A DNA stretch of 64,000 nt from Geodermatophilus amargosae. Lineage in GTDB: Bacteria > Actinomycetota > Actinomycetes > Mycobacteriales > Geodermatophilaceae. The notes under the pieces were generated by a model. It did no database searches. It was given only the letters and a program-made list of their open reading frames with translations, and was not told where the DNA came from. How positions within the stretch are numbered: the first letter of the stretch is position 1; the number at the start of each line of letters is the position of its first letter. The stretch lies in contig NZ_FPBA01000013.1 in assembly GCF_900116515.1 (NCBI RefSeq), positions 62,001 through 126,000 on the forward strand. Reading direction: 5' to 3'. The translations under genes were made by a program, and so were the position numbers. This document shows, piece after piece, positions 3,133-22,587 of the stretch.

Positions 3133-3149
3133 CTGCCATTGACCGGCAG
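3133..3149. promoter_or_regulatory. Operator-like motif, site 2 of 4
   Basis: CTGCCATTGACCGGCAG has six-base arms around a five-base spacer with one arm mismatch, and an extra C/G pair on each side extends the symmetry. It lies between the IclR gene and the esterase start, about 70 bases upstream of the esterase GTG. The same 17-mer pattern recurs at 4063-4079, 19353-19369 and 22571-22587. Confidence 0.6.
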
Positions 3150-3212
3150 GGACGGCCCCGTCCGGAGGCTCGGCCCGAGCGTGCGAGGGCTGAGAGGGAC
3201 GGGGTCCTCCGA

Positions 3213-4016
3213 TCAGCGGCCGAGCGGCCGCCGGGCACCGAGCTCACGGGAGATCGCGCGTGCCGCGGTGCGCACGGCCGGGCCGAGCAGCCGCGCGTCG
3301 GCGCGCTCCTCCGGCACGACCACCGACAGCGCCGCCGACAGCCGGTCCTGCGCGTCGAACACGGGCGCGGCGACGGACACCAGCGGCTGGGGGACCTTGC
3401 GGCGGAAGTGCGCGAGCCCCTCGCGGCGGACGTCGGCGAGCGTCCGCCGTAGCGCCGCCTCCGACACCGGGACCCGCTCGGGCTCGTGCAGCAGCGGCCG
3501 GGACAGGTACTCCTCCTGCACGTCGTGGTCGGCGTAGGCGAGCAGCACGAGGCCGACGCCGGTCGAGTGCAGCGGCAGCCGGCCGCCCACCTGGTAGAGC
3601 ACCGGGATCGCCGCGTGCGCCGAGAGCCGCTCCACCAGGACGGCGTCCCCGCCCTCCCGCACGGCGAGCAGCACGTGCTGGCGGGTGACCTCCTCGAGGT
3701 CGCCCAGGTAGGGCATCGCCACCTGGCGCAGGCCGCGGGCGCGTGGCGCCAGCGAGGCGACCTCCCACAGCCGCAGCCCCACGGTGAACCGGCCGTCGGC
3801 GCCGCGCTCGAGCGCGCCCCAGGCCTGCAGCCGCCCGGCGAGCCGGAGCGTGGAACTGGTCGGGATGCCGCTGCGGCGGGACAGCTCGCCGAGGGTCAGC
3901 GCGGGGTGTGCGGCGTCGAAGGCGGACAGCAGTGCCAGCGCCCGGTCGACCACCGGATCGCCCTGTGGCGGCCGGCGGCCGCGGACGCGCGCCACGGGGG
4001 GTGGGTCGTCGGTCAT
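3213..4016 (-). CDS. IclR family transcriptional regulator (probable glycan-locus regulator)
   Basis: A 267-residue IclR protein. The winged HTH spans about residues 20-80 (DRALALLSAF, then TLGELSRRSGIPTSSTLRLAGRLQ), and the effector-binding domain fills about 95-260 (PLHSTGVGLVLLAYA, SVAAPVFDAQDRLSAALSVVV). It is divergent from the ABC importer operon and upstream of the esterase and dehydratase on its own strand. IclR proteins bind short palindromes and respond to sugar-acid or aromatic metabolites. The shared 17-bp motif lies just upstream of its start (4063-4079) and at three other places in the locus, so autoregulation plus control of the whole cluster is a strong inference. Confidence 0.85.
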   Translation of the reverse strand: MTDDPPPVARVRGRRPPQGDPVVDRALALLSAFDAAHPALTLGELSRRSGIPTSSTLRLAGRLQAWGALERGADGRFTVGLRLWEVASLAPRARGLRQVAMPYLGDLEEVTRQHVLLAVREGGDAVLVERLSAHAAIPVLYQVGGRLPLHSTGVGLVLLAYADHDVQEEYLSRPLLHEPERVPVSEAALRRTLADVRREGLAHFRRKVPQPLVSVAAPVFDAQDRLSAALSVVVPEERADARLLGPAVRTAARAISRELGARRPLGR

Positions 4017-4200
4017 CTCCCGGTCACCTCCCGGTCACTGATGAGGCGCGCACCACACTGGCGTTCCATTCAACGGCATTGTGCCTGACGCCACACCCGG
4101 GTCGTCCTCATCGTCTACGTCAGTCGGGCGGAGTCGCCCGCGCGGCCGCCGGTCGGCCGTCCAGACCCCTCGACCCGTCGAGGATGGGGAGCCAGGACAC
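4017..4200. promoter_or_regulatory. Divergent intergenic region, IclR / ABC importer
   Basis: These 184 bases separate the IclR gene from the importer operon and must hold both promoters. The only clear structure I see is the 17-bp motif at 4063-4079. No convincing -35/-10 pair could be fixed by eye. Confidence 0.5.
4063..4079. promoter_or_regulatory. Operator-like motif, site 1 of 4
   Basis: GTTCCATTCAACGGCAT matches the site at 3133-3149 at 12 of 17 positions, including the core CCATT-A-CGGCA. It also sits within a slightly wider imperfect palindrome, TGGCGTT-N6-AACGGCA (4059-4078). It is 47 bases from the IclR start and 122 bases from the importer start, so it could serve both. Confidence 0.55.
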
Positions 4201-5811
4201 ATGATCAAGATCTCTCGACTGCGACTGCGACTGCGCAGCTCGGCCACGCGGCCGATGTCGGTCCGCATCGGTGCGGCGACCATCGCCCTCGCGACGGCCA
4301 CCACGCTGGCCGCCTGCGGTGGCAACGGCGGCGGCGGTGGCGGCGGCGGCGCCGGCAGCGCGAGTGCCGAGGGCACGCTGACCTTCGCCTACGACGCGGA
4401 CGCCGCCCCGACCGGCTACGACCCGCTGCTCTACTCGCAGGGCCAGTTCACCTTCTTCAGCGCGATGTACGACGCGCTGTTCGTGACCCAGGCCGACGGC
4501 ACCGTCGCACCGAGCCTGGTGACCGAGTTCTCCAACAACCCCGAGAACACCCAGACGACGCTGTCCCTGCGGGAGGGCGTCACCTTCACCGACGGGTCGC
4601 CGCTGGACGCCGAGCTGGTCAAGGTCAACCTCGACCGGCGCAGCGACGAGGACCTGGAGGCCTACGGCGCCATCGCCCCCGGCGGCGCGAGCGAGATCAC
4701 CGACGTCACGGTGTCCGACCCGCAGACCGTGGTCATCACCTGGGCCCAGCCGCAGGCGACGCCCGAGAACAACCTCGTCGACACCGCCGGCATCATCGTC
4801 GGCCCGGCCGGCGTCGCCGACCCCTCATCGCTGGAGACCACGCCGGACGGCTCGGGCGCCTACACGCTCAACGCCGACGAGACGACGCGGGCGAGCACCT
4901 ACACCCTCGACAAGAACGACGAGGCGTGGGCCGCCGACGAGTGGAGCTACGACACGATCGTCTTCGACGTCATCACCGACCCGCAGGCCCTCGCCAACGC
5001 GGTGGTCTCCGGCCAGGCCGACGTCGCGACCGTCCTGGACCCGACGACGATCGACCTGGTCGAGCAGCGGCAGCGGACGGTGAGCGTCGGCGGCACCATC
5101 GTCGGCTTCCCGGTCATCGACAAGACCGGCGCGAACAACCCCGCCTTCGCCAGCGAGCAGGTGCGGCTGGCGATGATCCACGCCACCGACCGCGAGACGC
5201 TGGTCAACGACCTGCACGACGGCTCCCGGCCGACGTCGCAGCTGTTCCCCGAGAGCGCTCCCGGGTTCGACCCGGCGATCGACGAGGAGTTCGCCTACGA
5301 CCCCGACCGCGCCCGGGAGCTGCTCGCCGAGGCCGGGTTCCCGGACGGCATCGACGTCAACTACACGGTCCTCGGGCAGCCGGACGAGGACGCCGTCGCG
5401 ATCCAGGGCCAGTGGGCCGAGGTCGGGATCCGGCTGAACTTCGTCACCGCGACCTCGACCGACCAGGTGTTCGCCGCGGTGCGCACCGACCCGGTCATCT
5501 TCGGCCCCTTCACCGTCGGCGCGCAGCCCGCCGGCTTCATCGCCGGCGTGCTCTACGGCGGGTTCATGAACATGCAGGGCGCCACCGAGCCGGAGATCGA
5601 GTCCTCCCTCGGCGCTGCCCTCGGTGCCACCGGTGACGCGCAGGAGCACGCCCTGACCGACCTCAACCGGGCCATCACCGCCAACGGCTGGTTCGTCCCG
5701 GTGTACGAGGACTTCACCTACGCCGGCTACAACGCCGAGTCCGTGTCGGAGCCGGCCTTCGCCGGGACCAACAACTACCTGGTCCTGTCGGAGATCCAGC
5801 CCGCCAGCTGA
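4201..5811 (+). CDS. ABC importer solute-binding lipoprotein, family 5 (oligopeptide/oligosaccharide type)
   Basis: A 536-residue SBP_bac_5 protein. It has an Arg-rich N-terminus, a hydrophobic stretch and a lipobox LAAC with Cys39, followed by a long Gly linker. The mature part has typical family-5 features: an early YDPLLYSQ segment, LREGVTFTDGSPLDAELVK, and a C-terminal half with FAYDPDRARELLAEAGFP. It would be anchored outside the membrane and deliver ligand to the permeases encoded downstream. Family 5 proteins bind peptides, nickel chelates, opines or oligosaccharides; the glycosidase context favours oligosaccharides here. ATG 4201 was chosen for the AGGA just upstream. A later in-frame ATG (4255) would also leave a usable signal peptide. 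Confidence 0.85.
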   Translation: MIKISRLRLRLRSSATRPMSVRIGAATIALATATTLAACGGNGGGGGGGGAGSASAEGTLTFAYDADAAPTGYDPLLYSQGQFTFFSAMYDALFVTQADGTVAPSLVTEFSNNPENTQTTLSLREGVTFTDGSPLDAELVKVNLDRRSDEDLEAYGAIAPGGASEITDVTVSDPQTVVITWAQPQATPENNLVDTAGIIVGPAGVADPSSLETTPDGSGAYTLNADETTRASTYTLDKNDEAWAADEWSYDTIVFDVITDPQALANAVVSGQADVATVLDPTTIDLVEQRQRTVSVGGTIVGFPVIDKTGANNPAFASEQVRLAMIHATDRETLVNDLHDGSRPTSQLFPESAPGFDPAIDEEFAYDPDRARELLAEAGFPDGIDVNYTVLGQPDEDAVAIQGQWAEVGIRLNFVTATSTDQVFAAVRTDPVIFGPFTVGAQPAGFIAGVLYGGFMNMQGATEPEIESSLGAALGATGDAQEHALTDLNRAITANGWFVPVYEDFTYAGYNAESVSEPAFAGTNNYLVLSEIQPAS

Positions 5812-5817
5812 GGCCAC

Positions 5818-5855
5818 CGGCCGGTGGCCGCGGAACCCTCCGCGGCCACCGGCCG
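5818..5855 (+). terminator. Intercistronic GC-rich hairpin after the binding-protein gene
   Basis: A perfect 17-bp stem (5818-5834 with 5839-5855) and a 4-base loop ACCC begin 7 bases after the stop codon. There is no T-tract. A competing 18-bp palindrome (5812-5829) overlaps its left arm. Such hairpins between a binding-protein gene and its permease genes usually act as attenuators or RNA-stability elements that give the binding protein excess expression. Confidence 0.7.
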
Positions 5856-5902
5856 TGCCCGACCACCCCACTGACCCGGCACCCACGGACAAGGGACCCG
5901 AG

Positions 5903-6844
5903 ATGCTCGCCTACGTCGCCAAGCGACTGGCCCTGGCGGTCGGCACCGTGCTCGCCGCGGTCGTGATCGTCTTCCTGCTGGTGCACGCCAGCGACACCAC
6001 CCCCGGCGCCGTCCGTGCCGGTGCGGGCGCCACCGCCGAGCGGGTCGCCGCGGAGAACGAGGCCCTGGGCTGGAACCGTCCGCTGTGGGTGCAGTTCACC
6101 GACTACCTGGGGCAGCTCGTGCAAGGCGACCTGGGGACCTCGCTCGTCGACGGCCGCGACATCGCCGCCGACCTCGCCGACCGGCTGCCGGTGACCGCCT
6201 CGATCGCGCTGTTCGCCACTCTGCTGTCGGGCCTGGTCGGGGTCTTCCTCGGCGTCACCGCCGCCGTCCGCGGCGGTCGCCTCGGCCGGCTCATCACCAC
6301 CGGCAGCGGCGTCGCGCTGTCCCTGCCCGCGTTCTGGGTGGGGATCCTGTTCGTCTACCTCCTGTCGCTGCAGCTGGGGTGGTTCCCCGCCACCGGCTAC
6401 ACCGAGTTCTCCTCCGACCCGCTCGGGTGGCTCTCGAGCATCGCGATCCCGGTGATCACCCTGGCCGTCGGCGGTGCCGCGATCATCGCCCGCACCGCCG
6501 CGGCCGGGATGCGCGAGGCCCTCACCCAGGAGCACATCCGCACGCTGCGGGCCATGGGGACGCCGCGGTGGCGGATCCGGTACGTGCACGCACTCCGATA
6601 CGCCAGCGTGCCGGTGGTCTCCACGCTCGGCATCCAGTTCATCGCGCTGTTCGGCGGCTCGGTGATCATCGAGAACCTCTTCGCGCTGCCCGGCCTCGGC
6701 CAGGCCAGCCAGGTCGCCGCGTCCTCGAGCGACTTCCCCGCGCTGGTCGGCGTCGTCGTCGTGGCCACGGTGGTCGTGGTCGTCACCAACCTGCTGCTCG
6801 ACCTCGTCGTCGCCGCCCTGGACCCGAAGGTGCGCACCTCATGA
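5903..6844 (+). CDS. ABC importer permease 1 (DppB-like)
   Basis: A 313-residue inner-membrane permease of the DppB/OppB type. It has an N-terminal TM helix (about 9-28), then a periplasmic segment (WNRPLWVQFTDYLGQLVQGDLGTS) and five more hydrophobic segments. The ATPase-contact EAA loop lies at about 200-235 (AGMREALTQEHIRTLRAMG). The C-terminal LDPKVR is typical of the family. Its stop overlaps the next start by ATGA, so the two are translationally coupled. It would form the channel with the permease half of the following fusion protein. Confidence 0.88.
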   Translation: MLAYVAKRLALAVGTVLAAVVIVFLLVHASDTTPGAVRAGAGATAERVAAENEALGWNRPLWVQFTDYLGQLVQGDLGTSLVDGRDIAADLADRLPVTASIALFATLLSGLVGVFLGVTAAVRGGRLGRLITTGSGVALSLPAFWVGILFVYLLSLQLGWFPATGYTEFSSDPLGWLSSIAIPVITLAVGGAAIIARTAAAGMREALTQEHIRTLRAMGTPRWRIRYVHALRYASVPVVSTLGIQFIALFGGSVIIENLFALPGLGQASQVAASSSDFPALVGVVVVATVVVVVTNLLLDLVVAALDPKVRTS

Positions 6845-8873
6845 GCGTCATCCCCCTCGACGCGGCCGACGAGGTCGCCACCGAACCCGTCCCGCCGGCC
6901 CGGCGCCGCCGCGGCCTCCCTGGCCTCCTCCGCCGTCCCGGCGGGATCTTCGGCGCCGCCTGGCTGACCTTCGTCATCGTGGCGTCGCTCACCGCGCCGC
7001 TGTGGCGGCCGTTCGAGCCCGGCCAGCAGGACACCGCCAACCGGCTCGCGCTGCCCTCGGCCGAGCACTGGCTGGGCACCGACCCGCTGGGCCGCGACCT
7101 GCTCTCGCGGATCTTCACCGCCGGCTCGCTGCCGCTGCTGTCCTCGGCGCTCATGCTCGTCGTCGCCTTCGGCATCGGCCTGCCGCTCGCGCTGATCGCC
7201 GCCGAGCGCGGCCGCCGTGTCGAGCGGGTCATCAGCCGGGTCACCGAGGTCTTCCTCGCACTCCCGGCCACGATCCTGCTGCTGGCGCTCATCGGCGTGA
7301 TCGGCAACCGGCTCTACCCGGTGATGGCGGTCCTCGGTGTGCTCATCTCCGCCGCGGTCTACCGCGTGCTGCTCGGGGTCGCGCAGTCGGTGCGCCAGCG
7401 GCTCTACGTCGACGCCGCCCGGGTCAACGGCCTGGGCTCGCTGCGGGTGAACCTCGTCCACGTGCTGCCCTCGATGGCCACCGTCGTGGCGGTGCAGGCC
7501 GCGCAGCTGTTCGGCATCGGCCTGCTCATCGTCGCGGGCCTGGCCTTCCTCGGGTTCGGGCCGGGCGAGCCCGAGCCCAGCTGGGGCTTCATGATCCAGG
7601 ACGCGTCGGGCTACATCTACACGTCGCCGTGGCTGATGGTCCCCACGGGCCTGGTGCTCGCACTGACGGTCGTCGCGGCCAACGAGCTCGCCGACGCGCT
7701 GGCGGGCAGGGCCGCCGGTGCACGCGGGACCCGCCGTCGCCGCCGTCCGCTGCGCCGGGCCGTCGCCGCAGCCGCCGTGCCGGACGGCACCCCGGCCGAC
7801 CCGGCCGCCGTCCTCGAGGTCCGGGACCTCACCGTGTCCGTCGACGACGGCCCGGACCTGGTCACCGGCGTCTCCTTCTCTCTGCGGCAGGGGCAGGTCC
7901 TCGGTCTGGTCGGCGAGTCCGGCTGCGGCAAGACGATGACCGCCCGCTCGCTCCTGGGGCTGCTGCCCGACGGGGTCTCGGTCACCGGCGGATCCATCCG
8001 CTGGCAGGGCCGCGAGCTGGCCGGTCTGCCCGAGACCGAGCTCAACCGCATCCGCGGCCGGGAGATCGCGATGATCTCCCAGGAGCCGATGGTCGCCCTC
8101 GACCCGATGTTCTCCATCGCCACCCAGCTCGTCGGCCCGATCCGCCGCTTCCGCGAGGTGGGCCGGTCCCAGGCGAAGAGGATCGCCGCCGAGCTGCTGC
8201 GCAACGTCGGCATCGTCGACGCCGAGCGGGTGCTGAAGAGCTACCCGCACCAGCTGTCGGGCGGCATGGCACAGCGGGTCTGCATCGCGCTGGCGCTGAC
8301 CGGTGAGCCGCAGCTGCTCGTCGCCGACGAGCCGACCACCGCCCTCGACGTCACCGTGCAGGCCGAGATCCTGTCGCTGCTGCGCGCGCTCGTCCGTGAC
8401 ACCGGCCTGTCGGTCGTCATCGTCAGCCACGACCTCGGTGTGGTCGCCGACATCTGCGACGACGTCGCGGTGATGTACGCCGGCCAGGCCGTCGAGTCCG
8501 GCACCGCCGAGGCCGTCCTGGACGCGCCCGCGCACCCGTACACGATGGCGCTGCTCGGGGCGAACCCGCACGTGCCCGAGGGCGAGCCGGTGCCCGAGCG
8601 GCTGGCCTCGATCGCCGGCACCGTCCCCCCGCCCGGCTCGTGGCCGACCGGCTGCCGGTTCGCCACTCGCTGCCGCTTCGCGCAGGAGAAGTGCACCGTG
8701 CCCTTCCCGGCGCTGCCCGCCCACGGCGCGGGCTCGGTCCTCTGCATCCGGGTCGACGAGCTCAGCCGTGAGCACGCCACCTGGACGCCGGAGCGCGCAG
8801 GCGACGAGATCCAGCCCGGTGCCGAGGTCCTGGCGCCGGCCGACGAGACCGCCCCGACCGCTGGAGTGTCCTC

Positions 8874-8877
<4 letters not shown>
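6841..8877 (+). CDS. Fused ABC permease (DppC-like) and ATPase (DppD-like)
   Basis: A 678-residue fusion. Residues 1 to about 285 are a DppC-type permease: N-terminal TM after an Arg-rich stretch, GTDPLGRDLLSRI, EAA loop around YVDAARVNGLGSLRVNLVHVL. A basic Arg/Ala linker (about 287-320) joins it to an ATPase. Walker A GESGCGKT lies at about 358-365, followed by LSGGMAQR, the Walker B LLVADEPTTALD, the H-loop SHDLG and the Cys-containing oligopeptide-ABC C-terminal segment. The start is ATG 6841, overlapping the previous stop; longer in-frame upstream sequence is a shadow of the DppB gene. It overlaps the next gene by 4 bases. The ATPase half would pair with the separate DppF-like ATPase. 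Confidence 0.88.
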
Positions 8878-9959
<1,082 letters not shown>

Positions 9960-9969
9960 CGGGAGACAC

Positions 9970-13541: not shown

Positions 13542-16168
13542 GCGACCTGACCGTCGGCGCCGTCACCGTCGAGCACCACCGCGAGCCGCTCGGCATCGGC
13601 GAGACGGCACCGCGCCTGTCGTGGGTGACGTCGACCGAGCTGCCGGACTGGCGGCAGGCCGCCTACGAGGTGGAGGTCGAGCCGCAGGGCGGGCCGGCGT
13701 GGTCGTCGGGCCGCGTCGACTCCGACGCGTCGGTGCTCGTGCCGTGGGGCGCGCCACCGCTGACCAGCCGCGAGCGGCGCACCGTCCGCGTCCGCGTGTG
13801 GGGCGCCGGCGACGCGCAGCCCTCCGCATGGGGCGAGGACGTCGTCGTCGAGGCGGGGCTGCTCGAGCCCGCGGACTGGACGGCCACCCTGGTGCGGCCG
13901 GTGCTGCCCGAGGGCGACGAGCCGGCGGTCCTGCTGCGGCGCGAGTTCGTGCTCGACGCCCCGGTGGTCAGGGCCCGCCTGTACGCCACCGCGCAGGGCG
14001 TGTTCGAGGCCGAGCTCAACGGCGCTCCCGTCGGCGACGAGGTGCTGGCGCCGGGCTGGACCAGCTACCGGCACCGGCTGCGCTACCGCACGCACGACGT
14101 CACGTCCCTGCTCGCCGAGGGCGGCAACGCGCTCGGCGTGCACCTGGCCGACGGCTGGTTCCGCGGATACCTCGGCTTCACCGGCAAGCGGGACTGGTAC
14201 GGCGACCGCACCGGCGCCTTCGCGCAGCTGGAGGTCGACCACGCCGACGGCTCCCGCACGGTGGTCACCACCGACGGCACGTGGCGGTCGGCGCCGAGCT
14301 GGCTGACCCGCGCCGGGCTGTACAACGGCGAGACCGCCGACCTGCGCGCCGAGCTGCCGGACTGGTCGGCGCCCGGCTTCGACGACGCGGGCTGGACGCC
14401 GGTCGAGGCGGGCGAGCTCGACGTCGCCACGCTGGTCGCCCCGACCGGCCCGCCGATACGGCGCACGCAGGTCCTGCCGGTGCAGGCCGTCACCACCTCG
14501 CCGTCCGGGAGGACGCTGGTCGACCTCGGCCAGAACCTGGTCGGCCGGCTGCGGCTGCGGCTGCCCGACGGCCCGGCCGGCACGGAGGTCACCGTCCGGC
14601 ACGCCGAGGTCCTGGAGGACGGCGAGCTCGGCACCCGCCCGCTCCGGGCCGCGAGGGCGACCGACGTGGTCGTCCTCGACGGCGACGGCCCGCGCACCTG
14701 GGAGCCGCGGTTCACCTTCCACGGCTTCCGGTACGCCGAGGTGACCGGCTGGCCCGGCGAGCTGCGGGCAGAGGACCTCGAGGCCGTCGTCCTGCACACG
14801 GACATGCGGCGCACCGGCACGTTCACCTGCTCCGACCCCGACGTCGAGCGGCTGCACGAGAACGTCGTGTGGGGGATGCGGGGCAACTTCCTCGACATCC
14901 CGACCGACTGCCCGCAGCGCGACGAGCGGCTCGGCTGGACCGGCGACCTGCAGGTGTTCGCGCCCACCGCGTCGTTCCTCTACGACACCACCGGCATGCT
15001 CCGCTCCTGGCTGGCCGACCTCGCCGTCGAGCAGCGCGGGTTCGACGGCACGGTGCCCATGTACGTCCCGTTCCTCCCGCTGCTGCCGTTCCCGCAGCAG
15101 CCCGAGGTGGGCTGGGGCGACGCCGCCGTCGTCGTCCCGTGGGTGCTGTACCAGCGGACCGGGGACGCGGGCCTGCTCGCCGACCAGTGGGAGTCGATGA
15201 CCGCCTGGATCGACGCGTTCGCCGCCCGGGCGGGGGAGGACCTCGACTTCCCCGGCGGTGGCTTCTCCTTCGGGGACTGGCTCGACACCGCCGCCCCGCC
15301 GGACAACCCGGCGGCCGCCCGGACGCCGTGGCAGTGCGTGGCCACCGCCTACCTCGCCCGCTCGGCGCGCACGGTCGCGCAGGCGGCGCGGGTGCTGGGC
15401 CGCGACGGCGCCCGGTTCGCCGAGCTGGGGGAGCGGGCCGCCGCGCGGTTCCGCGCCGAGTACGTCTCCCCGAACGGCCGGGTCGCCTTCCCGTCGCAGA
15501 CCGCCTACGCGCTGGCGCTGGAGTTCGACCTGCTCGAGCCGCGCCAGCGCGGGCACGCCGGGCGGCTGCTGGCCGACCAGGTGCTGAAGGACGGGTTCCA
15601 CATCGCCAGCGGCTTCCTGGGCACGCCGCTGGTCACCGACGCGCTCACGGACGCCGGGGAACTGGCCACCGCCTACGAGCTGCTGCTGCAGCGGGAGAAC
15701 CCGTCGTGGCTGTACCCGGTGACGATGGGCGCCACGACGATCTGGGAGCGCTGGGACTCGATGCTCCCCGACGGGTCGATCAACCCCGGCGACATGACGT
15801 CGTTCAACCACTACGCGCTCGGCGCCGTCGCCGACTGGCTGCACCGCACCGTGGCCGGCCTCGCCCCGGCCGCGCCGGGCTACCGGCGGCTGCAGGTGGA
15901 GCCCCGCCCCGGTCCGGGGCTCACCTCGGCGGCGGCCACGCACGAGACGCCGTACGGTCCGGCATCGGTGTCCTGGGCGCTGACCGGCGGGACCGCGTTC
16001 GCCCTCGACGTGGTCGTCCCGCCGAACACCACCGCGGAGGTCGTGCTGCCCGACGGCAGCGCGCCGGTGGAGGTCGGCTCCGGCCGGCACTCCTTCACCG
16101 CGGAGGTCCCGGAGCCGCGGCCGGTGGAGAAGCCGGCGCTGTTCTTCGACCCGGACGCGCACGCATGA
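13538..16168 (+). CDS. GH78 alpha-L-rhamnosidase (second copy)
   Basis: An 876-residue GH78 protein with the classic motif DCPQRDERLGWTGD starting at Asp457. Glu463 is the likely acid and Glu737 in TTIWERWD the likely base. N-terminal sandwich domains carry APRLSWV, ARLYATAQGVFEAELNG and LADGWFRGYLG. It differs from the first GH78 in the active-site motif (one extra residue, Asp-Glu-Arg rather than Glu-Arg) and in much of the barrel, so the two probably cut different rhamnosyl linkages. No signal peptide. ATG 13538 overlaps the preceding stop. Confidence 0.9.
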   Translation: MSDLTVGAVTVEHHREPLGIGETAPRLSWVTSTELPDWRQAAYEVEVEPQGGPAWSSGRVDSDASVLVPWGAPPLTSRERRTVRVRVWGAGDAQPSAWGEDVVVEAGLLEPADWTATLVRPVLPEGDEPAVLLRREFVLDAPVVRARLYATAQGVFEAELNGAPVGDEVLAPGWTSYRHRLRYRTHDVTSLLAEGGNALGVHLADGWFRGYLGFTGKRDWYGDRTGAFAQLEVDHADGSRTVVTTDGTWRSAPSWLTRAGLYNGETADLRAELPDWSAPGFDDAGWTPVEAGELDVATLVAPTGPPIRRTQVLPVQAVTTSPSGRTLVDLGQNLVGRLRLRLPDGPAGTEVTVRHAEVLEDGELGTRPLRAARATDVVVLDGDGPRTWEPRFTFHGFRYAEVTGWPGELRAEDLEAVVLHTDMRRTGTFTCSDPDVERLHENVVWGMRGNFLDIPTDCPQRDERLGWTGDLQVFAPTASFLYDTTGMLRSWLADLAVEQRGFDGTVPMYVPFLPLLPFPQQPEVGWGDAAVVVPWVLYQRTGDAGLLADQWESMTAWIDAFAARAGEDLDFPGGGFSFGDWLDTAAPPDNPAAARTPWQCVATAYLARSARTVAQAARVLGRDGARFAELGERAAARFRAEYVSPNGRVAFPSQTAYALALEFDLLEPRQRGHAGRLLADQVLKDGFHIASGFLGTPLVTDALTDAGELATAYELLLQRENPSWLYPVTMGATTIWERWDSMLPDGSINPGDMTSFNHYALGAVADWLHRTVAGLAPAAPGYRRLQVEPRPGPGLTSAAATHETPYGPASVSWALTGGTAFALDVVVPPNTTAEVVLPDGSAPVEVGSGRHSFTAEVPEPRPVEKPALFFDPDAHA

Positions 16169-17640
16169 CCCCACGTCCCGTCGTCCCCGGCTTCCACCCC
16201 GACCCGAGCGTCGTCCGGGTCGGCGACACCTACTGGATGGTGCACTCGAGCTTCGAGTACGCCCCCGGCGTCCCGCTGTACCGCTCGCCCGACCTGGTGA
16301 CGTGGGAGCAGGCCGGGCACGTGCTGGCCCGGCCCTCGCAGCTCGACGTCTCGGCCGCGCCCGGGTCGGGCGGGATCACCGCGCCGACCATCCGCCACCA
16401 CGACGGCCGGTTCTGGATGGTGACCACCAACCTCGCCGACGGCGGCTGGCAGGTGCTCACCTCCGCCGAGGACCCGCTCGGCGACTGGTCGGACCCGGTC
16501 CGGCTGACCGGCGTCCGCGGCATCGACCCAGACCTGGCCTGGGACGACGACGGCACGCTGCTGGTCAGCTACGCCGGCTTCGGCGCGGGCGGCCCGGCCG
16601 GGCTGGTGCAGCAGGCCGTCGACCCGGTCACCGGCGCAGCGCTCACCGAGCGGCGCCCGCTGTGGCAGGGCACCGGCGGCCGGTTCCCGGAGGGGCCGCA
16701 CCTGTACCGGGTGGGCGCCCTCTGGTACCTGCTCATCGCCGAGGGCGGCACCGAGCGCGGGCACGCGGTGACCATCGCGCGCGGGCACTCGCCGGCCGGG
16801 CCGTTCGAGCCGTGCCCGTCCAACCCGCTGCTCACCCACCGCGGCGTCGAGTCGCCGGTGCAGAACACCGGCCACGCCGACCTGGTGCAGCGCCCCGACG
16901 GCAGCTGGGCGATCCTCTTCCACGGCGTGCGCCCGCGCGGCGCCAGCCCGCAGTTCCACGTCCTCGGCCGGGAGACCTTCGCCGCCGAGGTGGAGTGGGT
17001 CGACGGCTGGCCCCGGCTGGGGGAGTGGCTGACCCCGCCGGACGGCGCCGTCGAGGTCTCCGACGACCTCTCCGGCCCCGCCTGGGTGGCGCCCCGCCGC
17101 TTCCCCGGCGAGCTGCTGACCCGGGTCGAGGGCGGCTGGCGGCTGACCGCGGCCGACCCCGACCCCGCGTCGGAGGACCTCGCCGTCGTGGGCCGCCGCC
17201 AGGAGCACGAGGACGCCCTCTTCCGCGCCGTCGTGCGGGCCTCCGACGGGGTCGGGGGGCTGACGGTGCGCATCGACGCCCGGCACCACCTCGACCTCGA
17301 GGTCGAGGGCGACCGCGTCCGTGCCGTCGCCCAGGTCGGCGCGCTGCGCTCGGTGCTCGGCGAGGCCGCCGTCCCCCCGGGCGACGACGTCGTCCTGGAG
17401 ATCCGCACGCTGCCGGGCGAGGGGCACTTCTCCTCGACGGCGCTCGCCCCCGACGTGCTGGTGGCCGGGCTCGCCGGCGCGGGCGGGTCCACCGAGCTCG
17501 GCCGCCTCGACGGGCGCTACGTCTCCACCGAGGTGGCGGGCGGCATGACCGGACGGCTGGGCGGCGTCTGGTGTGCGCGGGGCGAACTGCTCGTCCGATC
17601 GACCACCTACCGCGGCGCCGACGCCCCGGCCGCCGTCTGA
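16165..17640 (+). CDS. GH43 family glycosidase (beta-xylosidase/alpha-L-arabinofuranosidase type)
   Basis: A 491-residue GH43 enzyme made of an N-terminal five-bladed propeller (about 1-300) and a C-terminal beta-sandwich (about 310-491). The catalytic trio is visible: Asp13 in FHPDPSV (base), Asp121 in GIDPDLAWDDDG (pKa modulator) and Glu176 in RFPEGPHLY (acid). The two-domain layout is that of the beta-xylosidase/arabinofuranosidase subgroup with the LGR-x-TF sequence near 270. No signal peptide. ATG 16165 overlaps the second rhamnosidase stop. It would remove arabinose or xylose side chains from imported oligosaccharides. Confidence 0.88.
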   Translation: MTPRPVVPGFHPDPSVVRVGDTYWMVHSSFEYAPGVPLYRSPDLVTWEQAGHVLARPSQLDVSAAPGSGGITAPTIRHHDGRFWMVTTNLADGGWQVLTSAEDPLGDWSDPVRLTGVRGIDPDLAWDDDGTLLVSYAGFGAGGPAGLVQQAVDPVTGAALTERRPLWQGTGGRFPEGPHLYRVGALWYLLIAEGGTERGHAVTIARGHSPAGPFEPCPSNPLLTHRGVESPVQNTGHADLVQRPDGSWAILFHGVRPRGASPQFHVLGRETFAAEVEWVDGWPRLGEWLTPPDGAVEVSDDLSGPAWVAPRRFPGELLTRVEGGWRLTAADPDPASEDLAVVGRRQEHEDALFRAVVRASDGVGGLTVRIDARHHLDLEVEGDRVRAVAQVGALRSVLGEAAVPPGDDVVLEIRTLPGEGHFSSTALAPDVLVAGLAGAGGSTELGRLDGRYVSTEVAGGMTGRLGGVWCARGELLVRSTTYRGADAPAAV

Positions 17641-17654
17641 CCATGGAGGAACGC

Positions 17655-18521
17655 GTGTCCCTGCGCATCACGGAACGCTGCCGGGTCGTCGTCGACAACG
17701 ACTGGGCCGGCGACCCCGACGGCCTGGTCGCCCTCGCCCACCACCTGCTCAGCCCCGCCAACCGGGTGGACGCGGTGACCAGCTCGCACCTGAACCCGGT
17801 GTTCGGGCCACCCGAGGGCACCGCGGAGAGAGGCGCCCGGTTCGCCCAGGAGCTGGTGGACCTGGTCGACGGCCCCCGGCCGGCGGTCGCCGCCGGCTGC
17901 GACGTGGTCCTGGACGCAGGCGACACCCGCTCGGCCGCGGCGGACCTCATCGTCGCCGAGGCCCGGCGGGACGACCCGTTGCCGCTGCTGCTCGTCTGCG
18001 CCGGGCCGCTCACCAACGTCGCGCAGGCGCTACGGCAGGCGCCGGAGATCGCGTCGCGGCTGACGCTGGTCTGGGTCGGCGGGGCACTGGACCCGGCCGC
18101 CTTCGAGTACAACCGGGAGACCGACGCCGAGGCAGCCCGTGAGGTGCTGGCCCGCACCGACCTCGCGGTCTCCCAGTTCCCGCTGGAGACCTACCGGCGG
18201 TGCGAGTACTCCGTCGCCGAACTGGAGCAGGACCTGGGTGGGGCGGGCCGGGTGGGGGCGTGGCTGTGGCAGCGGTACGTCGAGCTGCCGATCCCCTACT
18301 TCGTGGAGCAGGGGGAGACCTGGCCGCTCGGCGACAGCCCGCCGTTGCTGCTGACCGCCCTCAGCGATGCGACCAGCGCGTGGACCGAGACCGCGTCCGC
18401 GCCCGGGGGTGCGTCCCGCCGCGTGTACGTCGACGTCGACGTCCGGCTGCTGGTCGCCGACCTCTACGCCAAACTGCGCCGGCACGAGCGGCAGGCGGTC
18501 GGGTCCTCGGGGCCGGTGTGA
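17655..18521 (+). CDS. Nucleoside-hydrolase-like (IUNH superfamily) protein
   Basis: A 288-residue protein with an inosine-uridine nucleoside hydrolase fold. VVVDNDWAGDPDGLVAL replaces the usual D-T-D-P-G-x-D-D Ca2+ motif, keeping three Asp but one residue longer. VCAGPLTNVAQAL is the conserved second motif, and the C-terminal RRVYVDVDVRLL supplies another Asp pair. GTG 17655 was preferred because GGAGG lies 7 bases upstream; an in-frame ATG at 17643 precedes it. It lies last in the importer-glycosidase operon. Ribohydrolases of this superfamily cleave N-glycosides, but the setting suggests a role on a glycan or sugar derivative, which is inference. Confidence 0.75.
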   Translation: MSLRITERCRVVVDNDWAGDPDGLVALAHHLLSPANRVDAVTSSHLNPVFGPPEGTAERGARFAQELVDLVDGPRPAVAAGCDVVLDAGDTRSAAADLIVAEARRDDPLPLLLVCAGPLTNVAQALRQAPEIASRLTLVWVGGALDPAAFEYNRETDAEAAREVLARTDLAVSQFPLETYRRCEYSVAELEQDLGGAGRVGAWLWQRYVELPIPYFVEQGETWPLGDSPPLLLTALSDATSAWTETASAPGGASRRVYVDVDVRLLVADLYAKLRRHERQAVGSSGPV

Positions 18522-18557
18522 CCGGTGACCGGGGGGGCACCCGCCCCACCCCACGGG
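18522..18557. terminator. Weak bidirectional terminator between convergent genes
   Basis: The 36 bases between the nucleoside-hydrolase-like gene and the convergent SDR gene contain GTGACC and GGTCAC arms around a run of G and a C-rich stretch, giving a short imperfect hairpin. No T-tract. This is a modest call. Confidence 0.35.
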
Positions 18558-19310
18558 TCACAACGTGGTCATGCCGCCGTCCACGGCGAACACCGCACCG
18601 GTGGCGAACGCCGACTCGTCGCTGGCCAGGAACACCATGACGCCCTCGAGGCCACCGGTCGTGCCGGCCCGGCCCATCGGGATCCGGCCGACGATCCCGG
18701 CCCGCGCCCCGGGGTCGGCGGTGAGGGTGCTGACCAGACCGGTCTCGGTGTAGGGCGGCACGACGGTGTTCACCCGGATGCCCCGCCGGGCGTAGGCGGC
18801 GGCGACCGTGCGGCCCAGCCCGTGCATGCCGGCCTTGGACGACGCGTAGGCGGTGAACTCCGCGCCCTCGCCACTGAGCGCGGTGGGGCGGCCGGTCAGG
18901 ACGATCGAGCCGCCGCCGACGGTCAGCATCCCGCGGACGGCGTGCTTGACGGTCAGGAAGGCGCCGGTCAGGTTGACCTCGTGGGTGCGCCGCCAGACGT
19001 CGAGGTCGAGGTCGGCGACCTCGGCGTCCTGTCCGAACAGCTGCACGCCGGCGTTGACGACGACGACGTCGGGGACCCAGCCGTCCGCGGCCAGCGCGGC
19101 GAACCCGCCCGCGACGCCGTCCTCGTCGGTGACGTCCATCGGCACCGCCCGCCCGCCCGACGCCGCGGCGGCCGCCTCGGCCCCTGCGGCGTCCCGGTCG
19201 GCGTAGGCGACCCGCGCTCCCTCGGCGGCGAACCGGTCGGCCACCGCCCGCCCGATGCCGGCGGCAGCACCGGTGACCAGTGCCGTCTTCCCTGCCAGTC
19301 GCCCACTCAC
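18558..19310 (-). CDS. SDR family oxidoreductase
   Basis: A 250-residue classical short-chain dehydrogenase. It has the NAD(P) motif TGAAAGIG (about 12-19), NAG (about 87-89), YASSK with the catalytic Tyr/Lys pair, and a C-terminal AVDGGMTTL. The Asp after beta-2 (AYADRD) favours NAD. The residue where the catalytic Ser normally sits (13-14 residues before Tyr) lies in LTGRPTAL and is not Ser. Start is GTG 19310; no strong ribosome-binding site. In this locus it could oxidise a sugar, a sugar lactone precursor or a deoxy-keto acid (as in the LRA5 step of L-rhamnose oxidation), but the substrate is unknown. Confidence 0.78.
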   Translation of the reverse strand: MSGRLAGKTALVTGAAAGIGRAVADRFAAEGARVAYADRDAAGAEAAAAASGGRAVPMDVTDEDGVAGGFAALAADGWVPDVVVVNAGVQLFGQDAEVADLDLDVWRRTHEVNLTGAFLTVKHAVRGMLTVGGGSIVLTGRPTALSGEGAEFTAYASSKAGMHGLGRTVAAAYARRGIRVNTVVPPYTETGLVSTLTADPGARAGIVGRIPMGRAGTTGGLEGVMVFLASDESAFATGAVFAVDGGMTTL

Positions 19311-19541
19311 GTCCGCAGTCTGTCCCGCGCCCCCCGGGGCACCGGGACCCGTCTGCCATCCACCGGCACGCGGCTGTCCGTCGGCTGCCCGCGTCGTCGA
19401 GTATCGGGGACGCGGGCTCCAGCGGCGACCCAGCGGACGGCCGGTCGCCCCTGACGCCGGACCCGCGTGGGCACGGGGCGCTCCAGCCAGGACGCCATCC
19501 GTCGCGTGCTGCCCCCTCGTCCCCCCGATGACAGGACAGCC
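19311..19541. promoter_or_regulatory. Divergent intergenic region, SDR / GH2
   Basis: These 231 bases lie between the SDR gene and the GH2 gene and must carry both promoters. The only recognisable element is the 17-bp motif at 19353-19369. No coding potential is convincing. Confidence 0.5.
19353..19369. promoter_or_regulatory. Operator-like motif, site 3 of 4
   Basis: CTGCCATCCACCGGCAC matches site 2 (3133-3149) at 14 of 17 positions. It lies 43 bases upstream of the SDR start and 173 bases upstream of the GH2 start, so it could act on either divergent promoter. Confidence 0.55.
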
Positions 19542-21947
19542 ATGCGCCGCATCCCGTTCACGACCGGCTGGCAGACCCGGCCGCACGCCAACTCCTTCGC
19601 CGAGGTGGTGGGTGCCGCCGCGCCCTGGCAGGACGTGACCCTGCCGCACGACGCCACGCTCGGCGAGCCCCGCGAACCCGCTCACGGCGCCGGCCGCGGC
19701 TACTTCCCCGGCGGCGTGTACGAGTACCGGAGGACGTTCGACGTCCCGTCCGACGCCGCCGGCCGGCGGTGGGTGCTCGAGTTCGAGGGCGTCTACCGGC
19801 GGGCGACGGTCCACGTGAACGGCGCCCTGGCCGGGCACTGGGCGTCGGGCTACACCGGCTTCGCCGTGCCGCTCGACGACTTCCTGCGGTACGGCGACGA
19901 CAACGAGGTGCGGGTCGTGTGCCGGTCGGCCCAGGACTCCCGCTGGTACGCCGGCGCGGGCATCCACCGGCCGGTGCACCTCGTCGTCGGCGACCTGCTG
20001 CACGTCGCGCTCGACGGCGTCCGCGTCACCACCCGGGACGCCGACGCCGAGCTCGCCGTCATCGAGATCGCGACGACCGTGGAGAACGACCGGCCGCGGC
20101 TGGCCACCGTCGAGGCGGTCACCGAGGTCCGCGACGCTGCCGGTGCCGTGGTCGCCACCGACCGGGCGCCGGTCACCGTCCGGCCCGGCGAGCCCGCGGT
20201 CGTGCGGCAGCGCCTCGTCGTCCGCGAGCCGGCCCTGTGGGGTCCCGGCTCACCCGCGCTGTACACCGCCACGGTGCACCTGCGCGACGGCGACGCGGTC
20301 GTCGACGACGACACGGTGACCTTCGGCATCCGGACGGTCTCGGTCGACCCGGTGCGCGGCCTGCGGGTCAACGGCGAGACCGTGGACCTGCGCGGGGCGT
20401 GCGTGCACTCCGACAACGGCGTCCTCGGTTCCGCCACCGTCGACCGCGCCGACGAGCGGCGGGTGGAGCTGCTGCGGGCGGCCGGCTTCAACGCCCTGCG
20501 CAGCGCCCACAACCCGATGAGCCGGGCGATGCTCCAGGCCTGCGACCGGCTCGGCGTCCTCGTCATGGACGAGCTCACCGACGTGTGGACGGAGAGCAAG
20601 TCCGACTTCGACGCCGCACTGGACTTCTCCGAGTGGTGGCAGCGCGACGTCGCGGCGATGGTGCGCAAGGACGTCAACCACCCGAGCGTGGTCATGTACT
20701 CGATCGGCAACGAGATCCCCGAGGTCGCCACCCCGCACGGCGCGCTGTGGTCGCGACGGCTGGCGGAGGCGGTGCGGGCCCTCGACGACACCCGCTCGGT
20801 CACCAACGGCGTCAACGGCATGCTCGCCGTGATCGGCGAGGCGACGCAGAGCGTCGACGGCGGCATCAACACGATGCTGTCGGACATGGGTGGCTTCATG
20901 CGCGAGCTGTCCGGGTCGGAGCTGGTCGGCCGGCGGACGGCGGAGTCCTTCGCGGTGCTCGACGTGGCCGGCCTGAACTACATGGACGCCCGCTACGAGG
21001 CCGACCGCGAGGTCTTCCCGAACCGCGTCGTCGTGGGCAGCGAGACCTTCCCGGGCGACGTCGACCGGCTGTGGCGGCTGGTCCGCGACAACCCGCACGT
21101 GATCGGCGACTTCACCTGGACCGGCTGGGACTACCTCGGGGAGGTGGGCATCGGCCGGGTCGCCGACGTCGAGGACCCGACCGCCCGTCAGCTCAACGGC
21201 CCGTTCCCGTGGCTGCTGGCGCACGTCGGCGACATCGACGTCACCGGGCACCGGCGGCCGGCGTCCTACCACCGCGAGATCGTCTTCGGTCTCCGCCGCG
21301 ACCCCTACGTCGCGGTCCTGCGGCCGGAGCGCTCCGGTCGGGAGACCGTGTCGACACCGTGGTCGTGGAGTGACACCGTCGGCAGCTGGGCCTTCCCCTC
21401 CGGGACCGAGGGGACGCCGCTGACGGTCGAGGTCCACAGCGACGCCGACGAGGTCGAGCTGCTGCTCGACGGCGAGTCGCTGGGCACCGCGAAGGCAGGG
21501 GAGGCCCACCGCTTCCGGGCGGAGTTCACGGTGACCTGGGCGCCCGGTGAGCTCACCGCCGTCGCCCGCACCGGCGGCGGGGAGACCGGCCGGTTCTCGC
21601 TGCGGTCGGTGGAGGGGCCGGTCGCGCTGGCCGCCGTCGCCGACCGCGAGGTGATCCGGGCCGACGGCACCGACCTCGCGTACGTGGACCTCACGCTGCA
21701 GGACGCCGCCGGCACCGTGGCGCTCGGCGTCGACCGCGAGGTCACCGTCACGGTCGAGGGGCCCGGCGTGCTCGCCGGGTTCGGCAGCGCGGCGCCGTCG
21801 ACCGAGGAGTCCTACCTCGACGACGTGCACACCACGTTCGACGGCCGCGCGCTGGCCGTCGTCCGCCCGACCGGCCCGGGGACGATCACGGTCACCGCGT
21901 CGGCGGCCGGCTGCGAGCGCGTGACCACGACCGTCGAGGCGCGCTGA
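19542..21947 (+). CDS. GH2 family glycoside hydrolase (beta-galactosidase/beta-glucuronidase type)
   Basis: An 801-residue GH2 enzyme. It opens with the sugar-binding domain (LPHDATL, YEYRRTFDVP), then an immunoglobulin-like sandwich (to VTFGIRTVSVD) and the TIM barrel with LRGACVHSDNG and AHNPMS. Glu391 in SIGNEIPE is the acid/base and Glu501 in GSETFPG the nucleophile. C-terminal sandwich modules follow, ending in a Big-like domain (VTVEGPGVLAGFGSAAPS). No signal peptide, so it is cytoplasmic. ATG 19542 follows an AGGA. It would remove a non-reducing beta-linked galactose or glucuronic acid from rhamnogalacturonan-like fragments. Confidence 0.85.
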   Translation: MRRIPFTTGWQTRPHANSFAEVVGAAAPWQDVTLPHDATLGEPREPAHGAGRGYFPGGVYEYRRTFDVPSDAAGRRWVLEFEGVYRRATVHVNGALAGHWASGYTGFAVPLDDFLRYGDDNEVRVVCRSAQDSRWYAGAGIHRPVHLVVGDLLHVALDGVRVTTRDADAELAVIEIATTVENDRPRLATVEAVTEVRDAAGAVVATDRAPVTVRPGEPAVVRQRLVVREPALWGPGSPALYTATVHLRDGDAVVDDDTVTFGIRTVSVDPVRGLRVNGETVDLRGACVHSDNGVLGSATVDRADERRVELLRAAGFNALRSAHNPMSRAMLQACDRLGVLVMDELTDVWTESKSDFDAALDFSEWWQRDVAAMVRKDVNHPSVVMYSIGNEIPEVATPHGALWSRRLAEAVRALDDTRSVTNGVNGMLAVIGEATQSVDGGINTMLSDMGGFMRELSGSELVGRRTAESFAVLDVAGLNYMDARYEADREVFPNRVVVGSETFPGDVDRLWRLVRDNPHVIGDFTWTGWDYLGEVGIGRVADVEDPTARQLNGPFPWLLAHVGDIDVTGHRRPASYHREIVFGLRRDPYVAVLRPERSGRETVSTPWSWSDTVGSWAFPSGTEGTPLTVEVHSDADEVELLLDGESLGTAKAGEAHRFRAEFTVTWAPGELTAVARTGGGETGRFSLRSVEGPVALAAVADREVIRADGTDLAYVDLTLQDAAGTVALGVDREVTVTVEGPGVLAGFGSAAPSTEESYLDDVHTTFDGRALAVVRPTGPGTITVTASAAGCERVTTTVEAR

Positions 21948-21970
21948 CCGGGCTCCTCCACCGTGCCGGC

Positions 21971-22564
21971 ATGACGGACGGGGGCCTGCGGGTGCAGCCG
22001 TGGCGCGCCGGCGGGTGGACGACCGCCCCCGCCGCCGCCGTCGAGGACGGGCCGGACCTGGTGGTGACCGCCGTCGAGGGCAGCGACGCGGGGCGGCACA
22101 CCGCCTACGGCTTCGTGCACGACGACGCGCACGCGCTCCTGTCCCCGATGGCGTCCCCGGGCGCGGTCGAGGTGACGTCCGACGTCGGCTGGGACGGGCA
22201 GTTCGACCAGGCCGGGCTGGTGCTCCGGGCGGACGAGGAGACCTGGCTCGAGGCCGGGGTGGAGACGACCGACGGCGCCGCCTACGTCGGCGCCGTCGTC
22301 ACGCTGGGCCACTCGGACTGGTCATCGGCACCGGCGCCGGAGTGGGCCGGCCGCCGGGTCACCGTCCGGGCCAGCCGTGCCGGGGACGCGGTCACCGTCC
22401 GCGCGCGGGTCGACGACGAGGCCTTCCGCCTGGTCCGGGTCGCGTCCTTCCCGCCGGAGGCCGCGGTGCGGGCCGGGCCCCACTGCTGCGCACCCACCCG
22501 GAGCGGCCTCGTCGTGCGCTTCCGGCGGTGGGCGCTCGGCCCGGCGGACGCCGCGCTGCACTGA
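21971..22564 (+). CDS. DUF1349 domain protein (concanavalin-like fold)
   Basis: A 197-residue protein. SDVGWDGQFDQAGLVLRADEETWLEAGVE and the closing VRAGPHCCAPTRSGLVVRF match DUF1349, a family with a ConA-like lectin/glucanase fold common in glycan loci. No catalytic residue pair is assured. It starts 23 bases after the GH2 stop, without a strong ribosome-binding site, so coupled translation is likely. A role as cytoplasmic carbohydrate-binding or processing partner of the GH2 enzyme is inference. Confidence 0.75.
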   Translation: MTDGGLRVQPWRAGGWTTAPAAAVEDGPDLVVTAVEGSDAGRHTAYGFVHDDAHALLSPMASPGAVEVTSDVGWDGQFDQAGLVLRADEETWLEAGVETTDGAAYVGAVVTLGHSDWSSAPAPEWAGRRVTVRASRAGDAVTVRARVDDEAFRLVRVASFPPEAAVRAGPHCCAPTRSGLVVRFRRWALGPADAALH

Positions 22565-22570
22565 GCCGCG

Positions 22571-22587
22571 CTGCCACTGGATGGCAG
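22571..22587. promoter_or_regulatory. Operator-like motif, site 4 of 4 (perfect palindrome)
   Basis: CTGCCACTGGATGGCAG is a perfect six-base inverted repeat with a five-base spacer. Read on the other strand (CTGCCATCCAGTGGCAG) it matches site 3 at 14 of 17 positions. It lies in the short DUF1349-GH3 gap, 41 bases upstream of the GH3 GTG, where a promoter for GH3 would sit. Confidence 0.6.

What the first reader, a model, noticed from the sequence alone, without database searches (positions are those of the whole stretch)
3133..22587. Four copies of one 17-bp palindromic motif define a glycan regulon
The 17-mers at 3133 (CTGCCATTGACCGGCAG), 4063 (GTTCCATTCAACGGCAT), 19353 (CTGCCATCCACCGGCAC) and 22571 (minus strand CTGCCATCCAGTGGCAG) share the core CCAT-N2-A-N2-GGCA, and the last is a perfect palindrome on its own. 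All four lie in non-coding gaps ahead of a transcription unit of the same locus: esterase/dehydratase, IclR/importer, SDR/GH2 and GH3. IclR proteins bind short palindromes of about this size, and the only regulator gene inside the locus is the IclR at 3213-4016 with a copy at its own start. It would tie glycosidases up to 18 kb away to one regulator.
Basis: partly seen in the sequence, partly recalled or inferred. Interest (0 to 1): 0.75.

Follow-up and report, generated by a model that had tools for sequence, protein, structure and literature searches.

The report
IclR regulon for plant flavonol glycosides
A short repeated DNA motif marks the promoters of a gene cluster that probably lets soil actinobacteria eat plant flavonoid glycosides such as rutin, and comparison with related genomes points to one IclR-type regulator gene in the cluster as the protein that reads it.

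Summary
The four sites are real and beyond chance: the core CCATNNANNGGCA occurs 4 times in the window against 0.12 expected. Two further copies lie just left of the window, so 6 of the genome's 17 sit within 25 kb, all in gene gaps.

The motif (about TGCCATTGRNCGGCA) tracks the IclR gene across 112 genomes of the family: orthologue in 32, motif in 31, both in 29. Sites sit before the same genes in other genera; 31 of 32 orthologues have one next to the iclR gene. A 47% identical PobR/PcaR-like paralogue beside pobA has a sibling operator, TTCCGCTGAGCGGGA.

"Glycan regulon" needs correction. The strongest targets, outside the window, are a QueD-like quercetinase, an FAD monooxygenase and linked FAH/DUF3500 genes. 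With two GH78 rhamnosidases this reads as flavonol-glycoside (rutin-type) catabolism.

Against or open: no distant regulon member was found; unlinked quercetinase and DUF3500 copies lack the site. Binding, effector and sign are untested. I favour activation of the catabolic operons plus autoregulation: a -10-like box follows by 37-38 nt in 51 of 51 site-bearing monooxygenase and quercetinase promoters.

The parts
3133..3149 (+). IclR-type operator, upstream of the esterase/IlvD-EDD unit (minus strand; centre about 78 nt from the esterase start)
   Evidence: PWM 25.5; counterpart before EstB in G002, G018, G032, G051, G062, G107 and others, degenerate in G010 (12.8)
4063..4079 (+). IclR-type operator between iclR and the ABC importer operon (centre about 56 nt upstream of the iclR start)
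   Evidence: all 24 called SBP promoters carry a site and its flanks are conserved; distance to the called SBP start varies from 93 to 183 nt
19353..19369 (+). IclR-type operator between SDR (minus) and GH2 (plus)
   Evidence: a site is found before GH2 in G010, G032, G033, G050, G087, G092, G102 and G086 contig C95, often with variant sequence; none before the G107 gene
22571..22587 (-). IclR-type operator ahead of GH3 (perfect 6-bp arms, 5-nt non-palindromic middle)
   Evidence: also in G002, G010, G090 (14.3), G092, G102, G086 contig C95; not found in G006, G007, G014, G050, G100
3213..4016 (-). IclR-family regulator, predicted to bind all sites
   Evidence: PF09339 + PF01614; orthologue in 32 of 112 family genomes
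284..2002 (-). IlvD/EDD-family dehydratase
   Evidence: PRK06131 above cut-off
2087..3064 (-). HSL-type alpha/beta hydrolase (EstB)
4255..9959 (+). SBP_bac_5 ABC importer (binding protein, permeases, ATPases)
9970..12618 (+). GH78 alpha-L-rhamnosidase
12615..13541 (+). BD-FAE-type esterase (EstC)
13538..16168 (+). GH78 alpha-L-rhamnosidase, closest solved relative 6gsz
16165..17640 (+). GH43 glycosidase
17655..18521 (+). nucleoside-hydrolase-family protein
18558..19310 (-). SDR dehydrogenase (start placed at GTG 19310)
19542..22564 (+). GH2 glycosidase and DUF1349 protein
22628..24874 (+). GH3 glycosidase

Best explanation
The sites are operators of the IclR-family regulator encoded at 3213-4016. 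A dimer (or dimer of dimers) binds TGCCATTGRNCGGCA. With its effector it controls six promoter regions: FAD monooxygenase and the genes after it; quercetinase-esterase and divergent aldolase; esterase-dehydratase; its own gene and the divergent importer-rhamnosidase operon; SDR/GH2; GH3. The regulon imports and strips rhamnosylated flavonol glycosides (rutin/quercitrin type), opens the flavonol with the QueD-like dioxygenase, and degrades the phloroglucinol-type A-ring product through the monooxygenase, DUF3500 protein and FAH-family enzyme. Shown here: sites, their conservation, their link to the IclR gene, and enzyme family assignments. Inferred: physical binding, substrate, effector (I favour an A-ring intermediate, because G088 and G111, which have no QueD homologue, keep regulator, sites and the monooxygenase/FAH/DUF3500 genes), and sign. 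I favour activation of the catabolic promoters, since the operator centre would lie near -50 relative to a conserved -10-like box and I see no good -35, with autoregulation at 4063.
For: Chance: 4 vs 0.12 expected; 2 out-of-sample sites. Specificity: strict motif KCCATTSRVCGGMA gives 26 hits in 26 genus genomes; 23 lie in the IclR-linked loci of 7 genomes with an orthologue, 3 elsewhere; reversed control 13 hits. Family: orthologue in 32 of 112, motif GCCATTGANCGGNA in 31 of 112, both in 29 (Fisher 3.8e-21, not corrected for kinship); reversed control in 6 genomes, none with the orthologue. Of the 58 hits, by my count 51 lie in the mapped IclR-cluster stretches or on contigs with cluster genes. 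A site of PWM 14.5 or more within 400 nt on the 5' side of iclR in 30 of 32 orthologue genomes, on either side in 31 of 32 (G007 and part of G018 read). In the stretches scanned, such hits are 122 in 85 kb of gaps and 14 in 1043 kb of genes. Sites precede the same genes in several genera. A -10-like xAnnCT box lies 37-38 nt downstream of the site centre in 24 of 24 monooxygenase and 27 of 27 quercetinase promoters that carry a site (box pattern chosen after the profile). Sibling operator beside the PobR/PcaR-like paralogue. QueD relatives 5fli/5flh E about 1e-41 with the H-x-H...E...H residues aligned. QueD homologue in 29 of 112 genomes, all 29 with the IclR orthologue. pcaH for the B-ring product is in the own genome. 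Review passage: a DUF3500 protein is proposed to open 1,2,3,5-tetrahydroxybenzene (PMC12388069).
Against: No binding or expression data. No distant regulon member: the separate quercetinase copy in G065 and separate DUF3500 copies in G083, G086, G034, G082 have no site, so the case rests on a physically linked cluster. Seven of the 58 family-wide motif hits lie away from it; two motif-bearing genomes, G069 and G097, have no orthologue, and the G097 site lies beside only a distant DUF3500 relative (27% identity). G015 (66% identical orthologue) has no QueD or DUF3500 homologue, only a weak variant beside iclR and one PWM-21 gap hit about 6 kb off before unclassified genes. G079 has its site on the 3' side of iclR only. 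Sites 19353 and 22571 are the weaker CCATCCA variant and are missing before some orthologous GH2/GH3 genes. The PWM does not fully separate the sibling operator: PobR-like paralogue sites score up to 17.6. The motif fits the published IclR group 1 consensus only in part. The -10 box and sign are inference; a conserved GTGAC...TCAC element between operator and box is unexplained.
Confidence: 0.8

Rival explanations
1. Same operators and same IclR, but the regulon serves a rhamnose-containing polysaccharide or oligosaccharide and the effector is a rhamnose-derived sugar acid.
For: Two GH78, GH43, GH2, GH3, importer, SDR and IlvD/EDD dehydratase with a DapA-family aldolase fit non-phosphorylative sugar catabolism; the FAH protein also resembles L-2,4-diketo-3-deoxyrhamnonate hydrolase.
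Against: Quercetinase and FAD aromatic monooxygenase are the most consistently marked targets. Stretches around iclR in G065, G080, G088, G111 lack GH78 and SBP homologues and keep monooxygenase, FAH, DUF3500 and sites. An IlvD homologue was called in 10 of 33 mapped stretch sets only. No polysaccharide lyase family appears among the locus proteins scanned.
Confidence: 0.13
2. The motif is read by another, unlinked regulator; the IclR merely travels with the cluster.
For: Sites and IclR nearly always sit in one physical cluster, so co-occurrence alone cannot separate regulator from cluster; G069 and G097 have the motif without an orthologue (both genomes are incomplete).
Against: In G000 IclR is the only regulator among the genes scanned from DUF3500 to GH3. 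A site lies next to iclR in 31 of 32 orthologue genomes. Four genomes with a DUF3500 homologue but no close IclR orthologue (G001, G034, G082, G096) have no GCCATTGANCGGNA (G001 is decayed, G096 67% complete, and G001 has one stray hit of the other pattern). The paralogous PobR-like IclR has a sibling palindrome.
Confidence: 0.07
3. IclR binds the sites as a plain repressor of all operons, released by the effector, rather than as an activator.
For: The family includes repressors, activators and dual regulators (PMC8222616 section 4); the 4063 site lies about 56 nt from the iclR start and may overlap promoters.
Against: At monooxygenase and quercetinase promoters the operator centre is 37-38 nt upstream of the -10-like box, a position more usual for activators (general knowledge); no clear -35 is seen.
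Confidence: 0.35

Closest known systems
IclR-family aromatic regulators PcaR/PcaU/PobR
   Same: Same domains (PF09339 + PF01614), TIGR02431 E 6e-33, odd-length operator with YCRY..YGR core, regulator gene beside its targets, aromatic catabolic targets
   Different: Score 114 against TIGR02431 cut-off 285, so not a member by that model; operator CTGCCAT..CGGCAG rather than GTTCG..CGAAC; six promoter regions, where the review says own gene and one or two adjacent operons (PMC8222616, section 4)
PobR/PcaR-like paralogue beside pobA (G000, G003) and pcaHGB (G003)
   Same: 47% identical, sibling operator TTCCGCTGAGCGGGA
   Different: Different half-site and HTH residues (L57 vs H57, R62 vs E62) and 4-hydroxybenzoate/protocatechuate genes as neighbours; itself also below the TIGR02431 cut-off (149.5)
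Streptomyces QueD quercetinase (PDB 5fli/5flh) and Bacillus quercetin dioxygenase (1y3t/2h0v)
   Same: Cupin protein aligns with QueD over residues 20-181 of 185 with metal-ligand residues kept
   Different: Bacillus flavonoid genes are, from recall only, under TetR-type QdoR/LmrA; here an IclR is predicted
1,2,3,5-tetrahydroxybenzene pathway of Aspergillus
   Same: DUF3500 protein proposed to act after an oxidative step on a trihydroxy-aromatic acid (PMC12388069 passages)
   Different: Fungal, gallate-fed; I saw nothing on bacteria in those passages

Membership tests
IclR-family regulator | HTH_IclR plus IclR_C domains | tested here: met
   PF09339 46.0 bits (cut-off 22), PF01614 101.3 bits (cut-off 24)
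IclR-family regulator | palindromic operator of group 1, GKTYCRYW3-4RYGRAMC (PMC8222616) | tested here: inconclusive
   YCRY...YGR core and 17-bp odd length kept; left half GTTCCAT at 4063 fits fully; outer bases CTG/CAG of most sites differ
IclR-family regulator | binds its own promoter region | tested here: inconclusive
   site on the 5' side of iclR in 30 of 32 orthologue genomes by sequence (for G007, G018); binding not testable here
PcaR/PcaU/PobR subfamily (TIGR02431) | score over curated cut-off | tested here: not met
   114.2 bits against 284.75
QueD/quercetinase | cupin with 3-His-1-Glu metal site | tested here: met
   alignment shows H, H, E and H kept; which residues are ligands is recalled
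QueD/quercetinase | flavonol dioxygenase activity | not testable with these tools
   needs enzyme assay
KdgR-type sugar-acid regulon | regulator of KdgR equivalog | tested here: not met
   NF011671 71.1 bits against 275
GH78 alpha-L-rhamnosidase | Pfam rhamnosidase domains over cut-off | tested here: met
   two proteins; both below the NCBIfam equivalog cut-offs

The most novel reading that the evidence does not exclude
A previously undescribed IclR-type master regulator controls a complete, multi-operon flavonol-glycoside pathway in Geodermatophilaceae, from uptake and de-rhamnosylation through quercetin ring opening to A-ring cleavage by a bacterial DUF3500 enzyme via 1,2,3,5-tetrahydroxybenzene, sensing an A-ring intermediate and acting through a CTG-11-CAG operator variant at about -50.
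Probability: 0.45. Interest if true: 0.7.

Novelty: new member of a known kind. Interest (0 to 1): 0.5.

Why it matters
It gives a ready-made, testable regulon for flavonol glycosides in Geodermatophilus and its relatives. It predicts which genes of unknown role (DUF3500, FAH, GH1-like, DUF1349) work in that pathway, offers a possible flavonoid- or phloroglucinol-responsive sensor with a proposed operator, and shows two paralogous IclR regulators with related operators, one beside a flavonoid pathway and one beside the protocatechuate pathway that would take its B-ring product.

Tried and rejected
A CRP/GlxR reading of the conserved GTGAC...TCAC element was considered and set aside: in the own genome the element with its ATGCT box (1 mismatch allowed) occurs only at the quercetinase and monooxygenase promoters plus one other place (reversed control 1), so it does not look like a genome-wide CRP site; it stays unexplained.

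A three-box IclR operator at the iclR/importer gap (GGCA-TTG-TGCC) was considered; the spacing does not match the published group 2 arrangement and I do not claim it.

Distant regulon members were sought and not found: separate Cupin-EstA (G065) and DUF3500/FAH copies (G083, G086, G034, G082) have no site at PWM 14.5 or more; one gap hit of about 13 in the G086 stretch is not next to FAH/DUF3500. Seven of 58 motif hits in 112 genomes lie away from the cluster (G002 C5, G018 C47, G069, G079 C21, G084 C140, G097, G102 C19). Beside them, G084 C140 has an LGFP/galactose-oxidase-like protein and G097 a distant DUF3500 relative; neighbours of the other five were not classified. I had first counted G097 as cluster; (27% identity) does not bear that out. 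Of the 51 kept, one (G065 C32:529341) is 8 kb from iclR beside a GMC oxidoreductase.

Plasmid-borne homologues: 39 records matched, 2 looked at. The Streptomyces one (55.5%) has no catabolic cluster of this kind; the Rhodococcus one (48%) sits beside 4-hydroxybenzoate 3-monooxygenase, FAH-family and other aromatic genes; neither shows a flavonoid cluster.

Paper searches listed nothing that by title or abstract describes an IclR regulator of quercetin or rutin catabolism; I did not open the 4 papers. That library holds only open-licence papers, so this is weak evidence of absence. Seen: PMC8222616 abstract, sections 4, 13, 14, 19 and passages; PMC12388069, PMC8416521, PMC8276758 passages only; the rest listings only. 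The primary paper on the tetrahydroxybenzene pathway (PMC10832562) was not held.

Structure prediction was not run: it would not test DNA binding.


Full report
Observation. The exact core CCATNNANNGGCA occurs 4 times in the window; 100 dinucleotide shuffles average 0.12 and none reaches 4. The window is C42:62001-126000 of a 5.87 Mb genome. The core occurs 17 times in that genome, no more than its reversed control (25), but 6 of the 17 lie in 24.8 kb (binomial 7e-11, interval taken from the hits). All six are in gene gaps by my coding-potential caller; of the 11 others, 8 lie in predicted genes, 1 overlaps a gene end and 2 have no predicted gene over them.

Who carries it. The closest named IclR orthologues are 94% identical, in two Geodermatophilus records, and 78% in a Blastococcus. 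In 26 genus genomes the refined motif KCCATTSRVCGGMA has 26 hits: 23 are in the loci of seven genomes with an IclR orthologue (G000, G002, G006, G007, G010, G014, G018) and 3 are elsewhere. The reversed control has 13 hits, scattered. The pattern was shaped on five of those genomes, so G014 and G018 are the independent ones. In 112 family genomes the orthologue (E up to 1e-75) is in 32, the motif GCCATTGANCGGNA in 31, both in 29; Fisher 3.8e-21, not corrected for kinship. Motif without orthologue: G069 and G097, both incomplete genomes; the G097 site is beside a distant DUF3500 relative. Orthologue without the exact motif: G015, G033, G085; the last two have close variants at the expected places. 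Of the 58 hits, 51 are in the mapped clusters and 7 are not (my count).

Where the sites are. Gene maps show sites before the quercetinase (Cupin-EstA, often with FAH-DUF3500), the FAD monooxygenase, EstB or GH1, in the iclR/importer gap, before GH2 and before GH3. Anchored profiles show the site among the most conserved blocks of the monooxygenase, quercetinase and iclR/importer promoters, less clearly for EstB, GH2 and GH3. In the stretches scanned, PWM hits of 14.5 or more number 122 in 85 kb of gaps and 14 in 1043 kb of genes. A -10-like xAnnCT box follows the site centre by 37-38 nt in 24 of 24 monooxygenase and 27 of 27 quercetinase promoters that have a site (related genomes, box pattern taken from the profile). 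By my reading that would put the operator near -50. No site of PWM 12 or more was called upstream of 6 further monooxygenase genes (G014, G065, G077, G080, G083, G111) and 1 quercetinase gene (G080); in several of these the gene lies downstream of other cluster genes or its start looks miscalled.

Why IclR. In the scanned locus from DUF3500 to GH3 it is the only regulator. A site lies within 400 nt on the 5' side of iclR in 30 of 32 orthologue genomes and on either side in 31 of 32 (with G007 and part of G018); G079 has it on the 3' side only and G015 only a weak variant. A paralogue 47% identical, beside pobA and, in G003, pcaHGB, has the related palindrome TTCCGCTGAGCGGGA; in this PWM such sites reach 17.6, so the two are not cleanly separated by score. 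The other paralogue loci scanned (L037-L043, L054-L057) score at most 7.4 in the 300 bp on each side. HTH residues differ between the two groups. Published IclR group 1 sites follow GKTYCRYW3-4RYGRAMC (PMC8222616: abstract, sections 4, 13, 14, 19 read). The 4063 left half GTTCCAT fits fully; most sites here are a CTG-11-CAG variant. Genomes with a DUF3500 homologue but no close IclR orthologue (G001, G034, G082, G096) have no GCCATTGANCGGNA, though G001 is decayed and G096 incomplete.

What it controls. The cupin matches Streptomyces QueD (5fli, 5flh; E about 1e-41) and Bacillus quercetin dioxygenase (1y3t, 2h0v), with the metal-ligand pattern kept. Its homologue is in 29 of 112 genomes, all with the IclR orthologue. 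The monooxygenase belongs with aromatic-ring hydroxylases. The FAH protein resembles HpcE-like and 2,4-diketo-3-deoxyrhamnonate hydrolases. A review passage reports that a DUF3500 protein is proposed to open 1,2,3,5-tetrahydroxybenzene in Aspergillus (PMC12388069). With two GH78 rhamnosidases, esterases and pcaH in the genome, the simplest reading is rutin/quercitrin-type catabolism. That quercetinase gives a depside hydrolysed to protocatechuate and a phloroglucinol carboxylate is recalled, not from a call. Four genomes keep iclR with monooxygenase, FAH, DUF3500 and sites but show no GH78 or SBP_bac_5 homologue in the stretch mapped (G065, G080, G088, G111). Of these G080 still has the quercetinase in the cluster, G065 has it elsewhere without a site and has a Peripla_BP_6 binding protein near iclR, and G088 and G111 have no QueD homologue at all. 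G080, G088 and G111 have an MFS transporter beside iclR, that of G111 resembling aromatic-acid symporters though below cut-off. G088 and G111 are my reason to suspect an A-ring effector.

Against. No site was found at unlinked copies of quercetinase or DUF3500 genes. The 19353 and 22571 sites are weaker and not universal. Binding, effector and sign are untested.

Verdict. It is a new member of a known kind (IclR-type aromatic regulon), with more promoters than the review describes as usual and a pathway for which my paper searches listed no such regulator.

Noticed in passing
contig C42:59761-59781 and 61404-61424 (left of window); same in relatives: Conserved GTGAC...TCAC element plus xAnnCT box at fixed distance downstream of the operator at quercetinase and monooxygenase promoters; only these two places plus one other in the genome with one mismatch allowed. 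Role unknown.
   Followed up: partly
window 32903-40590: Second aromatic cluster: FAD monooxygenase with ring-hydroxylase C-terminus, CoA-transferase III, citrate-synthase-like protein, LigB ring-opening dioxygenase. In G015 the 66% IclR homologue sits beside homologues of some of these genes.
   Followed up: no
G000:C64:224823-225572 and G003:C1:4829688-4830458: PobR/PcaR-like IclR paralogue beside pobA (and pcaHGB in G003) with palindrome TTCCGCTGAGCGGGA; similar palindromes flank the paralogues L044-L053 and L058, whose neighbours were not checked apart from G003's.
   Followed up: partly
G001:C17 about 300900-303900: Decayed version of the locus: partial IclR, FAH, DUF3500 with an internal stop, no FAD monooxygenase homologue and no motif in the stretch.
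   Followed up: no
L018:7937-11753 (left of window): L-arabinose genes (FGGY kinase, class II aldolase, AraA) beside the locus in G000 and G002 but not seen in the other stretches mapped; no site there.
   Followed up: no
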